The position numbers and the translations under genes are program-made. Under the pieces are notes generated by a model. The model saw only the letters and a list, made by a program, of their open reading frames with translations, made no database searches and was not told where the DNA came from. A DNA stretch of 64,000 nucleotides from a virus: the IMG/VR virus record IMGVR_UViG_3300031364_000001, positions 1-64,000 of that record; one strand, 5' to 3'. Below are positions 4,227-54,912 of the stretch, one piece after another (the stretch's first letter is position 1; every line of letters starts with the position of its first letter).

Positions 4227-4567
4227 CTATAATTTTTTAAAAGTTTTCTACATTCTGGACATCTATCAGATAAATCTTTAATATTATATTCTATATCTAT
4301 TTTAGCATTCAAATGTTCTTTTGGTAAATAACTAAGATCAGGCTGCTGATACGGAGATTGATGTTTATAACCACACTTTAACATTTCAATTACAAGTTCA
4401 TCATGGCTTTTTTTCATATTTTGCGGCTCAATTTGAACTATGGGATTTAACCGTCCATCTATATTATGATGTTTGAGAAAAATATGTCTATGTTTATGAA
4501 TTTCAGAATGACTTCTTAATAAATGTTTTCTACAAAGAAAGATTGGTGAAACTCCCCACATCCTCAT
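4199..4567 (-). CDS. Pyrimidine-dimer DNA glycosylase/AP lyase, endonuclease V-like
   Basis: Start set at ATG 4567 (MRMWGVSP), giving 122 aa; longer in-frame starts lie inside the HNH gene. The stop of the upstream gene overlaps as ATGA. The MRMWGVSPxxLCRKHLLRSHSEIHKH...HDELVIEMLKCGYKHQSP pattern matches the phage and bacterial T4-DenV-like family, which excises UV dimers. In T4 endonuclease V the N-terminal amine is the nucleophile, so the exact start matters. The C-terminal CPECRKLL gives a small possible zinc site. A second 5' fragment of the same gene lies at 5088-5186, on the far side of the HNH gene. Confidence 0.75.
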   Translation of the reverse strand: MRMWGVSPIFLCRKHLLRSHSEIHKHRHIFLKHHNIDGRLNPIVQIEPQNMKKSHDELVIEMLKCGYKHQSPYQQPDLSYLPKEHLNAKIDIEYNIKDLSDRCPECRKLLKNYSLLLYKDKL

Positions 4568-5049
4568 ATATGTTTCCATGATTGTCTTTTTAATATTTGT
4601 CTTATTTTTGTTTGACAAACATTATATTTTTTTGCTAATTTTCTTGTTGACCATATTTTTGGATTATAATTATCTCTTATCCATAAAACATCTTCTTTTT
4701 TCAGTTTAGATGATGGATTATCTTCTCCATATAAATGACCAGTAACCGTTCTGTTTTTTTTACCTCTATCTAAAATATTTTGTTTTTGTGTTCCTAACCA
4801 TAAATGATGTGGGTTTACACAAGAAGGATTATCACAACTATGACAGCAGATTAAATTTTTATCAATATGACCATTTTCAAAATAATAAGATGCTCTATGT
4901 GCTTTATATAATACGCTTTTTATACTATAAATTCCGTAACCATATACATCTTTTGTACCAATCCATTCCCAACAATCATTTTTTTCTTTTTTATTAACAT
5001 ATTTCCAAAATCTTTTTATTTGTTGCTCTGTTGGTTTATCTTTAAACAT
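4564..5049 (-). CDS. HNH homing endonuclease inserted at the glycosylase gene
   Basis: Start chosen at ATG 5049 (MFKDKPTEQQ) with SD AAGGAG, giving 161 aa; an in-frame ATG at 5088 lacks an SD. Motifs: CWEWIG...YGYG...AHRASYYFENG, then CHSCDNPSCVNPHHLWLGT, the zinc-coordinated HNH core. A C-terminal helix-turn-helix (STRKLAKKYNVCQTKIRQILK) is the DNA-binding part of such free-standing homing enzymes. It is flanked by two copies of the beginning of the glycosylase gene, so it looks like a mobile intruder that regenerated its target's 5' end. Confidence 0.85.
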   Translation of the reverse strand: MFKDKPTEQQIKRFWKYVNKKEKNDCWEWIGTKDVYGYGIYSIKSVLYKAHRASYYFENGHIDKNLICCHSCDNPSCVNPHHLWLGTQKQNILDRGKKNRTVTGHLYGEDNPSSKLKKEDVLWIRDNYNPKIWSTRKLAKKYNVCQTKIRQILKRQSWKHI

Positions 5050-5087
5050 TTTTAAATTCTCCTTATTAACATGAATGTTCATAAACA

Positions 5088-5186
5088 TTATAATAAATAA
5101 TGCTTTTTGTCAATAATTATTTCTCCATGTTCTCCTACTATATGTTTTATACACATAAATTTTGGGGATATCATCCACATTCGCAT
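5088..5186 (-). pseudogene. Truncated 5' fragment of the pyrimidine-dimer glycosylase gene
   Basis: 32 codons from ATG 5186 with a strong SD (AAAAGGAGTATAAT before ATG). The product begins MRMWMISPKFMCIKHIVGEHGEI and then diverges to a TAA. The beginning matches the start of the intact gene at 4567 (MRMWGVSPIFLCRKHLLRSHSEI), identity falling off near codon 23. This is the likely original gene start, cut off by the HNH insertion; the SD is better than that of the intact copy. Confidence 0.7.
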
Positions 5187-5389: not shown

Positions 5390-5514
5390 TATATAAAATA
5401 AATTATCTGTTCCTCTTTGTATATTTCTACCTTGTTTTACAAGATTTAACAATACATGTACAGCATAGATATTGTGCTTCTATGCGTCTACTTATTCTGC
5501 CACATAGCAACTAT
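5390..5514 (-). ncRNA. tRNA-like RNA element, copy a (5' half only)
   Basis: Minus strand begins ATAGTTGCTATG (5514-5503), identical to the first 12 nt of the elements at 11460 and 54912. GTGGCAGAATAAGTAGACGC follows, which resembles a tRNA-Leu D-arm. Then comes a stem GCATAGA/TCTATGC with a 9-nt loop, in the anticodon-arm position. The T-arm-like and closing CATAGCA parts found in the other copies are missing, so this copy is truncated or has diverged. The 3' limit given is approximate. Confidence 0.45.
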
Positions 5515-6158: not shown

Positions 6159-6195
6159 TGCTGACCTCCTTAAAATTTTCTTGCTCTGCATTTTT

Positions 6196-6279
6196 CATAA
6201 CGGCTTGTAACGTTCATCGGCTGCATTACAATAGACTAACCGTACTCCGTAGAGGCGTGCTAGTCAGTAAATAGTTATG
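6196..6279 (-). ncRNA. GC-rich structured leader RNA in the divergent control region
   Basis: An island of about 45% GC in surroundings of about 15-20%. Ends CATAAC (6196-6201) and GTTATG (6274-6279) pair. Inside, TGTAA/TTACA (6206-6210 with 6226-6230) and GACTA/TAGTC (6234-6238 with 6261-6265) form two further stems, a three-way-junction layout. RNA from the minus-strand promoter at 6308-6336 would carry it as a 5' leader ahead of the gene at 6158. A riboswitch, protein-binding site or small RNA are all possible; no known class was recognised. Confidence 0.5.
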
Positions 6280-8225: not shown

Positions 8226-9090
8226 CACTACCCAATTCTTAAAAGATTTTAATATTCCTTTTGATCCAAATTCTAAAAATGCGAGTAAAGGGTTTATAAA
8301 TATTAAGTGTGTTTTTTGTGAGGATCATTCCGACCATTTAGGAATTTCAACTACTTTACCTGCAGTAAAATGTTGGAAGTGTGGAAAACATTCTTTATAT
8401 GATACTATACAAAAACTTTTACCTTTTGAAAATCCTAAACAAATATTAAAAGAATATGATACTAATTTTATAATTCACGATAAAATAGAAAAAAAATTAA
8501 ACTATAACAATACTGAAATTAAATTACCTGGAAGCAAATTAGAAAAATGTCATAAATTATATTTACAAAAAAGGGAATTCAATTCTGATTATATAGAAGA
8601 AAAATATAAATTACAAGGCACTCTATATGATTCTAAATTCCCTTATAGTATTATTATTCCTATATATTTTAATAATAAATTAGTTACTTATCAGACAAGA
8701 GGTATTGCAAAAGATACAAAATATATTAATTGCTTACCTGAAAATGAAATAATTCCTATTAAGAATACTCTTTATAATATAGATAACTGCAAAGAAGATT
8801 ATATAATTGTTACTGAGGGAGTTTTTAAGGTTATGAAATTAGGAGATAATAGTTGTGCTACTTTTGGTAAGAATTTTACTAATATGCAAATTAAATTATT
8901 ATCTAAATATCAAAAAATATTTATTTATTTTGATCCTGATGAAGCAGGTAAAGATGGGGCAGAAAAGTTACATAGTATATTAGATAGTATAGGAAAAGAA
9001 GTTTATATAATAGATAATGATATCCCGCCTGATAATTTAAATTCAAATCAAGTAAAAGAGGTATGGCAAAATATTTATAAATTTGTTTAA
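8218..9090 (+). CDS. DNA primase (zinc finger plus Toprim)
   Basis: 290 aa from GTG 8218, overlapping the preceding gene. The N-terminal zinc motif is CVFC...CWKCGKH (residues ~31-60), used for template recognition. A Toprim domain follows: VTEGVFKVMKL near 195 and YFDPDEAGKDGAEKL near 240, with the metal-binding E and DxD-like acids. It resembles the primase half of T7 gp4 without a fused helicase; the separate DnaB-like helicase at 671-2110 would be its partner. The start is not firm because the SD is poor. Confidence 0.85.
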   Translation: MFNTTQFLKDFNIPFDPNSKNASKGFINIKCVFCEDHSDHLGISTTLPAVKCWKCGKHSLYDTIQKLLPFENPKQILKEYDTNFIIHDKIEKKLNYNNTEIKLPGSKLEKCHKLYLQKREFNSDYIEEKYKLQGTLYDSKFPYSIIIPIYFNNKLVTYQTRGIAKDTKYINCLPENEIIPIKNTLYNIDNCKEDYIIVTEGVFKVMKLGDNSCATFGKNFTNMQIKLLSKYQKIFIYFDPDEAGKDGAEKLHSILDSIGKEVYIIDNDIPPDNLNSNQVKEVWQNIYKFV

Positions 9091-11459: not shown

Positions 11460-11573
11460 ATAGTTGCTATGTGGCGGAATAGAGACGTTGTCGAAAAACA
11501 ATAATAGTAATTAGCTTGTTAAGAGATCAAGAATAAAAAATCTGTAAGAATCGAATCTTACCATAGCAACTAT
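11460..11573 (+). ncRNA. tRNA-like RNA element, copy b
   Basis: 114 nt closed by a perfect 12-bp inverted repeat, ATAGTTGCTATG (11460-11471) and CATAGCAACTAT (11562-11573). If TGCTATG/CATAGCA is read as an acceptor stem, GTGGCGGAATAGAGACG looks like a tRNA-Leu D-arm and GTAAGAATCGAATCTTAC (11544-11561) like a T-arm, although the T-loop is not standard and the D-loop lacks GG. A TTGT/ACAA stem lies in the anticodon-arm position. No ORF. Not a normal tRNA; a mimic or regulatory RNA is likely. Confidence 0.6.
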
Positions 11574-21397: not shown

Positions 21398-23118
21398 TAT
21401 AAGCCCCCATTTTCAATTAGAACTTTTTTTAATTGAAGATTAAATAATGTTCCGGCTGCGTTTGCTATTTGTCTATTACTATTTTGACTTCCTGGAGTTC
21501 CACCTTGTAGATTTATATTAGTGTCCATATTTATATTTTGTGTTTTTTGATTATTATTTGTAGTTGAGACTATTTCTTTTACTACATCTTTTTGTGTTTT
21601 TTTTCCTTTATCTCCTGTAAAAAAACCAACTACATTATTATATAAGTCAATAGCTTCTTGCAAAAACCCTGTAAAAAGACCTTTGAAAAAGTCTACTAAA
21701 TTAAACCATAATTGTTTTATAGCTTCTATAGGATGTGTAAATAGATAAATAATCCATTCACTAATACCAGAAAAAATTGACTTTATATTTTCTTTAAAAT
21801 TTTTAAAAAAGTCTATAATTTTTTTCCAGTTCTTTATGATTGTTAAAGGCAACCATAAAAAAGGCATAAATATAGAAATTACATTTTTAAATACCATTAT
21901 TCCTTGCCATAGAAGTTTAAAAAATTCTACTATCTTTTTTCTAAATTTTACTATAATTACAGTTATTGCAATGATAACAGCAATTAATGCAGCAACCCCC
22001 ATTATTATTACTCCGATCGGATTTGCCGTTAAAGCAAAATTTAAAGCCCATTGTGCAGCAGTCCATATTCCTTTTGCTTTTGCAATCATAAAAATAATTT
22101 TAATAAATTGTAAAAACTTTCCAAGTACCATAGCAGCCATTAATACTTTCTGTGCTATTATTACTGCATAAGTTGCAACTTCCCAAACAACCATAGCGGC
22201 TGCAATTGCAAGAATTACTTTTCCTAAAGGAGAAGAAATAATCCAAAACATTGCCTTACCAAGAACAGCTAATATATTTACTATACCAAATAAAACTTCA
22301 CCTAATTTAGTAAATGTTTCAATTAGTTTTTCTTTATTAGCTTCTGCCCATTTTTCTCCTTGTTCGATCATCTCTCTTACTTTATTCACTAATTTTGTCA
22401 TTATTGGTAAGAAAAAAGCACCGACTGTAGTAAAAAAATCCTCAATTCTAGCTTTCATTATTTTCATAGAATTTGCATAACCATCGGAAGTTCTTATAAA
22501 ATCCCCCATTGCATCAGCAGAATCTAATTGAACTTTTTCTAAAATTAACATTGCTCTGCTCTGTCTATCTAATACCCCATTAACAAGTTTTATTCCTCTT
22601 GCTTCAGCCATTGCTTTTAGAGTTGTATCAGAAATATCAACTCCGTATTTTCTCATTGGGAGAGCCATTCCTGCTATACCTGATTTTAGCGCTTCTAAAA
22701 CTTCTGCCGTAGGTGCATCATTGAATGACCCCAAATCAACACCTAATTTATTAAAAGCTGCTGATAATCCCAGAGCTTCTTTTCTTCCTATACCCATTGG
22801 TACAAGAAAATCTTGAAATGCACTTAATGCTTCTGTTGCCTCTAATCTTGACATTCCATACATTTTATTTAATTCATCCCGCATTTTCATAGCTTCATCT
22901 ACAACACCTTGAAAAACAACTTTAAATTTACTCATTGATTCTTCCATGTGACTAGCTGTTGCTACTGAAAGAGCTGCCATTGCTCCAGCAGCAACCCCAG
23001 CTATTACACCAATACGCTTGATATTTTGTTTTAACTTATCAAATTTTTTATCGGCATCTTTAATATCACTATCTTTAACTTTGAAACCGATAAGATTTAT
23101 TAATTCTCTTATAACCAT
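21397..23118 (-). CDS. Tail tape measure protein
   Basis: 573 aa. N-terminal helical part (IRELINLIGFKVKDSDIKDADKKFDKLKQNIKRIG...), a glycine/alanine-rich middle with the MEESMSKFKVVF and GIGRKEALGLSAAFNKLGVD segments typical of tape measures, and several hydrophobic segments (roughly 285-380 and 410-430). At about 0.15 nm per residue this predicts a tail near 85 nm, short for a myovirus. The tail assembly chaperone genes lie just upstream. Confidence 0.85.
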   Translation of the reverse strand: MVIRELINLIGFKVKDSDIKDADKKFDKLKQNIKRIGVIAGVAAGAMAALSVATASHMEESMSKFKVVFQGVVDEAMKMRDELNKMYGMSRLEATEALSAFQDFLVPMGIGRKEALGLSAAFNKLGVDLGSFNDAPTAEVLEALKSGIAGMALPMRKYGVDISDTTLKAMAEARGIKLVNGVLDRQSRAMLILEKVQLDSADAMGDFIRTSDGYANSMKIMKARIEDFFTTVGAFFLPIMTKLVNKVREMIEQGEKWAEANKEKLIETFTKLGEVLFGIVNILAVLGKAMFWIISSPLGKVILAIAAAMVVWEVATYAVIIAQKVLMAAMVLGKFLQFIKIIFMIAKAKGIWTAAQWALNFALTANPIGVIIMGVAALIAVIIAITVIIVKFRKKIVEFFKLLWQGIMVFKNVISIFMPFLWLPLTIIKNWKKIIDFFKNFKENIKSIFSGISEWIIYLFTHPIEAIKQLWFNLVDFFKGLFTGFLQEAIDLYNNVVGFFTGDKGKKTQKDVVKEIVSTTNNNQKTQNINMDTNINLQGGTPGSQNSNRQIANAAGTLFNLQLKKVLIENGGL

Positions 23119-23307
23119 TTATTTTGTCCTATCAAGTTCTTGTCTATGAAATTCATTAATTGCATTTTCATAATCATCTTCCATATCTATAACTGCGTTA
23201 TAAATTTGCAAATCCTTAAAACTTAAATTATTCTCAAAAATAAGGAAATTAGAATTCTTTTTAACTGCCTTCCAGAATTCCCATTCATTTAAAATTTCCT
23301 CATTCAA
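23119..23307 (-). CDS. Tail assembly chaperone, C-terminal part (frame -1 or TTG start)
   Basis: 62 codons from TTG 23307, but the frame is open upstream and is the -1 frame of the 23331 gene. Preferred reading: ribosomes on the 23331-23801 gene shift back within TCC AAA ATG ATA CCA AAA G (about 23348-23362) to make a longer G-T-type fusion. The -1 product would continue SEGVLNRIGEVGQL into this segment. The slippery site is not canonical. Two-product chaperones are the rule upstream of tape measure genes. Confidence 0.5.
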   Translation of the reverse strand: MNEEILNEWEFWKAVKKNSNFLIFENNLSFKDLQIYNAVIDMEDDYENAINEFHRQELDRTK

Positions 23308-23330
23308 TTGTCCTACTTCACCTATACGGT

Positions 23331-23801
23331 TTAGGACTCCTTCACTTTTGGTATCATTTTGGACAAGATACCAGTTTCTAACCCGCCTCCACCCATCAAC
23401 TCGAAAAACAGGAAATTGTTAGCCCTCATTACTTCTATTAGTAATTTGTAAACTGCTAATGTTTTTCCTCTAAAAACAAAATCAAAGTCATCGTTTTTGT
23501 TTAATATAAAATTTGTTAATTTTCCATTAAGATTAATTTCTACTGTAGTTAATTCAAACATATCATTAATAAAAGACTCCAATGCTATCTCATCAATATT
23601 CGATAACGTTTTTTGAACCCCATTTATAATCTTACTAAAATCTATTTCAGTATCCAGACTTTTCATTCCTTCCAAAATAGATAACATTGGAGCAAGATAT
23701 GTTATTGTTCTTTTTTCTAATCTTAATGCTTTTCGTGCAGGGAATTGGTTTATAAAAAACTTCATTCCGTCAATCTCTTTTGTTATAGTTTTTAAATCCA
23801 C
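23331..23801 (-). CDS. Tail assembly chaperone (G-like)
   Basis: 156 aa. KTITKEIDGMKFFINQFPARKALRLEKRTITYLAPML and GKTLAVYKLLIEVMRANNFLFFELMGG look like the helical TAC family (RNAP-subunit-like annotations). It binds the tape measure during tail assembly. It ends beside the -1-frame ORF at 23119-23307, see that entry. Confidence 0.7.
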   Translation of the reverse strand: MDLKTITKEIDGMKFFINQFPARKALRLEKRTITYLAPMLSILEGMKSLDTEIDFSKIINGVQKTLSNIDEIALESFINDMFELTTVEINLNGKLTNFILNKNDDFDFVFRGKTLAVYKLLIEVMRANNFLFFELMGGGGLETGILSKMIPKVKES

Positions 23802-54770: not shown

Positions 54771-54912
54771 ATAGCTGCTATGGTAAGATTCGATTCTTAC
54801 ACGGCTAGCCCATTATAGCCTTCACTCGGCGAAGCCGTACTTGTCAAATGCCTTCAACTTTCCCTCGCCACTTCAAGTCATTGGCGTCTCTATTCCGCCA
54901 CATAGCAACTAT
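54771..54912 (-). ncRNA. tRNA-like RNA element, copy c
   Basis: 142 nt closed by ATAGTTGCTATG (54912-54901) and CATAGCAGCTAT (54782-54771). D-arm-like GTGGCGGAATAGAGACGC and T-arm-like GTAAGAATCGAATCTTAC (54800-54783) match copy b. The middle is GC-rich with CGGCTTCGCCG and GGCTA/TAGCC hairpins and a CGCCA/TGGCG stem. No ORF. It lies between SSB and recombination genes; transcription from the SSB side or a weak own promoter (TATAAT at 54916-54911). Confidence 0.6.

What the first reader, a model, noticed from the sequence alone, without database searches (positions are those of the whole stretch)
11460..11573. Family of tRNA-like RNAs with shared 12-nt ends (three copies)
Copies b (11460-11573, +) and c (54771-54912, -) begin ATAGTTGCTATG and end with its complement, with D-arm-like GTGGCGGAATAGAGACG and T-arm-like GTAAGAATCGAATCTTAC; copy a (5390-5514, -) keeps only the 5' part. 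Middles differ entirely in sequence and length (114 vs 142 nt). A conserved frame with variable interior suggests a modular RNA: tRNA mimic, tmRNA-like, or guide-like.
Basis: partly seen in the sequence, partly recalled or inferred. Interest (0 to 1): 0.75.

Follow-up and report, generated by a model that had tools for sequence, protein, structure and literature searches.

The report
Phage tRNA mimics with variable inserts
The phage carries two complete copies (and one broken copy) of a small RNA gene that folds like a transfer RNA but has no anticodon and holds a different insert in each copy; the same RNA turns out to sit unannotated in many phages, including the tRNA gene clusters of well-known E. 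coli phages, and its job is unknown.

Summary
Copies b and c have a tRNA-like frame: 7-bp acceptor stem (here lengthened to 12 bp), U8-G9, D-arm, variable insert in place of the anticodon arm, and T-arm with an 8-nt loop. Copy a keeps only the 5' half. ARAGORN and Rfam do not recognise them. The same frame occurs in more than 100 viral contigs with unrelated acceptor stems that stay paired (90 distinct elements and 63 acceptors examined). A covariance model built without the window's lineage finds exactly b and c in the window (E 1.6e-10 each). Members lie unannotated in the tRNA clusters of phAPEC8-type E. coli phages, Synechococcus phage S-CAM9 and Levilactobacillus phage ENFP1. The insert runs from almost none (53-nt element) to about 195 nt and differs even between close relatives at the same site, while the frame is kept. 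None was found in 398 Pseudomonadota genomes. Best reading: a phage-specific, non-decoding tRNA mimic cut from longer transcripts, probably a decoy or competitor for a tRNA-binding host factor. The family and its architecture are well supported (about 0.9); the decoy mechanism is inferred (about 0.35). No earlier description was found in the library searched.

The parts
11460..11573 (+). copy b, complete element: outer 5-bp extension 11460-11464 / 11569-11573; acceptor 11465-11471 (TGCTATG) / 11562-11568 (CATAGCA); U8 G9 11472-11473; D-arm 11474-11488 (GCG GAATAGAGA CGT); insert 11489-11543; T-arm 11544-11561 (GTAAG AATCGAAT CTTAC)
   Evidence: sequence; held-out covariance model hit 11465-11568, 44.1 bits, E 1.6e-10; fold z -3.1
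54771..54912 (-). copy c, complete element: outer extension 54912-54908 / 54775-54771; acceptor 54907-54901 / 54782-54776; U8 G9 54900-54899; D-arm 54898-54884 (GCG GAATAGAGA CGC); insert 54883-54801; T-arm 54800-54783
   Evidence: sequence; held-out covariance model hit 54776-54907, 44.1 bits, E 1.6e-10; fold z -4.2; same site in close relative G002 holds another insert
5484..5514 (-). copy a, 5' half only (ATAGTTGCTATG + D-arm-like GTGGCAGAATAAGTAGACGC); no T-arm or 3' acceptor; probably a truncated relic
   Evidence: sequence; no 3' complement within 1.4 kb; no model hit with filters off
11489..11543 (+). variable insert of copy b (55 nt)
   Evidence: identical in close relative G002, unrelated to the insert of copy c
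54801..54883 (-). variable insert of copy c (83 nt); a similar module lies in another frame in relative G001 (23149-23262)

Best explanation
These are members of a large phage RNA family that mimics the body of a tRNA without being able to decode. SHOWN: a tRNA-like frame under structural selection (7-bp acceptor of any sequence, U8, A14-A15, 3-bp D-stem, D-loop usually without G18-G19, U48, 5-bp T-stem, 8-nt T-loop WAUCRAAY), an anticodon arm replaced by a short capped hairpin or an unrelated insert, no copies in 398 Pseudomonadota genomes, and frequent placement directly beside phage tRNA genes. INFERRED: the RNA is cut out of longer transcripts by the tRNA processing enzymes (in the window no promoter or terminator of its own was found; 10 of 90 members encode NCCA at the tRNA position). 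INFERRED and least certain: the product is a non-decoding decoy or competitor for a host protein that grips the acceptor/T-arm side of tRNA, for example a tRNA-directed defence nuclease or a tRNA surveillance or processing factor. The insert is a tolerated, fast-changing module that is exchanged between copies by recombination in the conserved frame.
For: Family and structure: a T-arm-only search gave 99 distinct loci; a fully paired 7-nt acceptor lies within 260 nt upstream in 82 (shuffled mean 18.4, max 29), followed by T in 79 (shuffled 6.1, max 13). A D-arm-only search gave 14 further contigs, 13 with paired acceptor and T-stem. Covariation: 12 of 15 pairs change on both sides, score 0.677 against 0.146 shuffled, far above all slid controls (acceptor and D-stem pairing were partly selected for in this set). 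Held-out model: only b and c in 64 kb, E 1.6e-10 each; phAPEC8, S-CAM9 and ENFP1 also hit. Not tRNA genes. tRNA core kept: U48 in 90/90, AA at 14-15 in 85/90. The frame can stand alone: 53-nt member L160, 64-68-nt members with small capped hairpins, which argues that the frame rather than the insert is the working part. Setting: in tRNA arrays of phAPEC8, S-CAM9, ENFP1; 17 of 81 within 21 nt of an ARAGORN tRNA. Insert exchange: window c against G002, flanks 90%/100% identical over 300 nt, element 64%; L107 against L140, flanks 92%/99%, element 63%; G004 against G007, upstream 95%, element 47%. Phage tRNA loci are known anti-defence loci and a decoy role for a phage tRNA has been proposed (PMC13096335, PMC11555353).
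Against: No expression data; no partner protein identified, and neighbouring genes share no common family. Most members encode no CCA, even in phages whose tRNAs do (phAPEC8). Loss of G18-G19 and the 8-nt T-loop change the elbow that RNase P and many tRNA-binding proteins read, so processing and binding cannot be taken for granted. Inserts are mildly more structured than shuffles (mean z -0.54), which fits a functional insert too.
Confidence: 0.4

Rival explanations
1. tRNA-like frame as scaffold: the frame serves for processing and stability only, and the variable insert is the working cargo (antisense RNA, aptamer or decoy for a fast-evolving host target).
For: Inserts differ at the same site between close relatives while the frame is kept; inserts are slightly more folded than shuffles (mean z -0.54 over 66); insert modules recur in other frames (window c and G001); L135 carries a tRNA-like insert.
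Against: Members with almost no insert keep the full frame (L160 53 nt, S-CAM9 about 65 nt, L195 68 nt). Conserved D- and T-loop sequences go beyond what a generic scaffold needs. No matches of window-lineage inserts to their own genome beyond chance.
Confidence: 0.3
2. Processing or spacer element: a tRNA-like structure that recruits RNase P, RNase Z or RNase E to cut polycistronic phage transcripts and tRNA arrays; the excised RNA itself has no further role.
For: Elements sit between genes or between tRNAs, and the window copies have no own promoter or terminator.
Against: A cutting signal would not need a specially conserved non-canonical D-loop and T-loop; several relatives have good sigma-70 sites just upstream (G003, G001), implying stand-alone genes.
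Confidence: 0.15
3. Decaying tRNA genes: remnants of phage tRNA-Leu-type genes that lost the anticodon arm and picked up random inserts.
For: The D-arm resembles class II tRNA (Leu); L192 keeps the GAATTGGTAGA loop and truncated forms such as copy a exist.
Against: Decay would not keep 63 different acceptors paired, U48 in 90/90, and the same altered T-loop in phages of E. coli, Synechococcus and Levilactobacillus.
Confidence: 0.04
4. DNA element: terminal inverted repeats of a small transposon or an attC-like recombination site rather than an RNA.
For: 12-bp inverted ends and exchange of interiors at the same site.
Against: G-U wobbles kept in the stem (c; G001), full change of the end sequence between phages with pairing kept, tRNA-type internal arms in a fixed order. 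The ends do not fit the attC core consensus (own knowledge).
Confidence: 0.03

Closest known systems
Bacterial and phage tRNA, class II (tRNA-Leu type)
   Same: 7-bp acceptor, U8, A14, 3-bp D-stem (GCG/CGC), A15-U48 possible, 5-bp T-stem, UCRA in the T-loop, location in phage tRNA clusters
   Different: no anticodon arm, D-loop usually lacks G18-G19, T-loop has 8 nt, mostly no encoded CCA; not recognised by ARAGORN (2 of 90) or Rfam RF00005
tmRNA, including permuted tmRNA (RF04321)
   Same: tRNA-like ends with an insert in place of the anticodon arm; permuted tmRNA genes lie near two members (L108, L109)
   Different: no Rfam tmRNA hit to the elements, G3-U70 pair in only 1 of 52, true D-stem present, no reading frame seen in common between inserts
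Phage T4 stable RNAs species 1 and 2 (rnaC, rnaD)
   Same: small stable RNAs of unknown function in a phage tRNA cluster; rnaC ends in a T-arm-like hairpin
   Different: 7-nt T-loop, no TGGCGGAA D-arm, not found by the model
GOLLD and ROOL RNAs
   Same: phage RNAs of unknown function near tRNA islands; GOLLD has a variable region that can hold tRNAs (PMC12286853)
   Different: several hundred nt, different fold; no Rfam hit in the loci scanned
Bacterial Y RNA YrlA (RF02553)
   Same: non-decoding RNA with a tRNA-like module (own knowledge)
   Different: no match in the window; here the RNA ends themselves form the acceptor stem

Membership tests
ordinary tRNA gene | called by tRNA finder or Rfam tRNA model | tested here: not met
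   ARAGORN 0 in window, 2 of 90 elements (one nested in an insert); no RF00005 hit for b or L195
ordinary tRNA gene | anticodon stem with 7-nt loop | tested here: not met
   region replaced by hairpins with small loops or by unrelated inserts
ordinary tRNA gene | G18-G19 in D-loop and 7-nt T-loop | tested here: not met
   usual D-loops GAATAGAGA, GAAGATAGA etc.; 8-nt T-loop in b, c and in 11 of 13 members found by D-arm alone (7 nt in L106, L108; also L099)
tmRNA | Rfam tmRNA match to the element | tested here: not met
tmRNA | G3-U70 alanine identity pair | tested here: not met
   pair 3-70: GC 22, CG 13, AU 9, UA 7, GU 1 of 52
tmRNA | tag reading frame with resume codon | not tested
   inserts looked at by eye only; many are too short
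T4 species 1 RNA (rnaC) | match to the family model | tested here: not met
   T4 tRNA cluster scanned, only tRNA-Ser reached 24.5 bits
GOLLD / ROOL / YrlA | Rfam model match | tested here: not met
   no match in the window or in the scanned loci
the phage tRNA-mimic family described here | frame recognised by covariance model trained without the window's lineage | tested here: met
   b and c, 44.1 bits, E 1.6e-10 each, nothing else in 64 kb
the phage tRNA-mimic family described here | expressed, processed small RNA | not testable with these tools
   needs RNA sequencing of infected cells

The most novel reading that the evidence does not exclude
A widespread, previously undescribed class of phage RNAs: anticodon-less tRNA mimics with a re-built elbow that bind a tRNA-directed host defence or surveillance protein, and whose exchangeable inserts are a second, fast-evolving anti-defence module, so that phage tRNA clusters carry RNA decoys besides working tRNAs.
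Probability: 0.25. Interest if true: 0.9.

Novelty: new variant of a known kind. Interest (0 to 1): 0.72.

Why it matters
Phage tRNA clusters are an active subject because host defences cut tRNAs and phages answer with tRNAs of their own. If these clusters also carry a conserved non-decoding tRNA mimic that annotation software passes over, it is a new player in that contest and a new natural example of tRNA mimicry. It is testable at once, because members sit in culturable E. coli phages (Phapecoctavirus).

Tried and rejected
Terminal inverted repeat transposon or attC-like DNA site: rejected on wobble pairs, changing stem sequence with pairing kept, and internal arms. Group I intron or other known RNA: no Rfam hit. 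tmRNA: see membership test. Guide RNA against own genome: longest identical or complementary stretch 9-12 nt, not above shuffles. T4 rnaC/rnaD: T-arm only, not the same family by the model. Bacterial host gene: the genome contigs pattern scan gave only two chance hits in Oceanisphaera coding sequence, 0 of 398 Pseudomonadota genomes have the T-arm, plasmids none. Conserved partner gene: none among 1908 neighbouring ORFs. Literature searches found no description, but the library lacks most subscription journals and preprints. Blastn with short queries finds only exact T-arm variants, so counts in named phages are lower bounds; searches with the window element and with the exact D-arm found no named phage. 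Scan totals in viral contigs are capped, so abundance is a minimum.

Full report
OBSERVATION. Copies b and c are exactly as described, apart from one G-U wobble at the 3' end of c; copy a has only the 5' half. The repeats are far beyond chance and b and c fold better than shuffled sequence. ARAGORN and Rfam find nothing in the window at these places.

FROM THREE COPIES TO A FAMILY. The record is an IMG/VR virus of 65,006 bases; its capsid-region protein matches prohead proteases and capsid proteins of tailed phages. Exact patterns from the frame found the same frame with other interiors in other viral contigs. Whole-record searches found more copies per phage, up to three in tandem in G001, one with the compensatory outer stem ATAATTGCTATG/CATAGCAATTAT, and one in G003 whose acceptor is GGCAGGG/CCCTGCC around the same D- and T-arms.

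The D-arm alone (GTGGCGGAATAGAGACGC) then found 14 more contigs, mostly with different acceptors. In 13 of them the acceptor pairs (6-7 of 7) with a strand that directly follows a T-arm (4-5 of 5 pairs).

SIGNIFICANCE. Of 99 distinct T-arm loci, 82 have a fully paired acceptor upstream against 18.4 (max 29) when acceptors are shuffled among loci; 79 against 6.1 when the U8 that follows is also required. I collected 90 distinct elements with 63 acceptors, 53 to 246 nt long; position 48 is U in all 90 and positions 14-15 are AA in 85. In an alignment of 52, all seven acceptor pairs, all three D-stem pairs and two T-stem pairs change on both sides. Acceptor and D-stem pairing were selection criteria for that set, so the unbiased evidence is. 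A covariance model from this set, which excludes the window's lineage, finds b and c and nothing else in the window, each at E 1.6e-10, and also phAPEC8, S-CAM9 and ENFP1. T4 rnaC and rnaD are not hit.

WHAT IT IS. The frame is that of a class II tRNA: acceptor, U8-G9, 3-bp D-stem, T-stem, with the partners for U8-A14 and A15-U48 in place. It lacks the anticodon arm, nearly always lacks G18-G19, and has an 8-nt T-loop WAUCRAAY. Small members replace the anticodon arm by next to nothing (L160, 53 nt) or by capped hairpins (S-CAM9 CTCT-TCGG-AGAG; phAPEC8 CCAG..CTGG; L195); large ones hold 50-195 nt. Even a 68-nt member is not seen by the Rfam tRNA model, while the adjacent real tRNA is. Ten of 90 encode NCCA directly after the acceptor, about 1.4 expected.

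SETTING. In Phapecoctavirus (E. coli), S-CAM9 and ENFP1 the element lies unannotated between tRNA genes. Among 81 elements 17 lie within 21 nt of an ARAGORN tRNA (two of these are calls overlapping the element itself). Others have sigma-70 sites whose -10 box ends a few bases before the element (G003 33733, G001 37729 and 26318) or a boxA-like TTCTTTGAAAAT upstream (naming from own knowledge). In the window neither complete copy has a recognisable promoter or terminator of its own, so they are probably cut from longer transcripts. The T-arm is absent from 398 Pseudomonadota genomes and from the plasmid collection.

INSERTS. Inserts turn over faster than anything around them. Window c and its relative G002 share 90% and 100% of the flanking 300 nt but have different interiors; the same holds for L107/L140 and, on the upstream side, G004/G007; conversely G002 and the window share copy b exactly but differ in the next gene, and L122/L140 share the element at 99% with different downstream sequence. 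The junctions fall in the conserved frame, which suggests recombination between copies. Inserts are mildly more structured than shuffles (mean z -0.54, n 66) and show no excess match to their own genome. L135 holds a tRNA-Val-like fold inside its insert.

MECHANISM. Members without an insert suggest that the frame can function alone; an arbitrary acceptor stem argues against a fixed amino-acid identity, and the missing anticodon argues against decoding. What remains conserved is the D-loop/T-loop side, so I infer that a protein is bound there. The best-supported guess is a decoy or competitor for a tRNA-directed host factor, in line with known anti-defence roles of phage tRNA loci (PMC13096335, PMC11555353). 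The chief rival is that the frame is a stabilising scaffold and the insert is the cargo. Neither can be settled without RNA data and deletions.

NOVELTY. No matching description was found in Rfam 15 or in the searched literature. I file it as a new variant of a known kind (tRNA-like RNA) rather than categorically new, because the fold is tRNA-derived.

Noticed in passing
window 6178-6232 (-): Weak match to type-P1 twister ribozyme (32 bits, E 0.0055, cut-off 67.2), between genes.
   Followed up: no
L087 2708-2757 (+) (record G008): Hammerhead type I ribozyme just above the Rfam cut-off in a relative of the window's phage.
   Followed up: no
L108 1923-2170 (-), L109 2-249 (-): Permuted tmRNA (RF04321, 60-62 bits) downstream of the tRNA-like element; ARAGORN predicts tag GNVLQMNRPQVRLAA in L108.
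   Followed up: partly
L074 4045-4253 (record G003): Element with the same outer ends whose interior holds a T-arm TTAGG-TTCGAGT-CCTAA followed by GTCTGGGG and later CCCCAGAC, i.e. tRNA halves in permuted order.
   Followed up: no
window 4564-5088 (-); L007 after the element at 8539: Homing-endonuclease-like genes (HNH by PHROGs/Pfam; GIY-YIG by eye) lie next to the elements, as SegB does in the T4 tRNA cluster.
   Followed up: no
L067 7998-8391 (record G001 22997-23390, -): Three elements in tandem, the middle one with an insert module like that of window copy c, the last only 68 nt long with an 11-bp outer stem.
   Followed up: partly
L238 1412-1450: In S-CAM9 a further short inverted repeat GTCCCGA...TCGGGAC sits between tRNA-Leu and the element; a similar one precedes the element in L134.
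   Followed up: no
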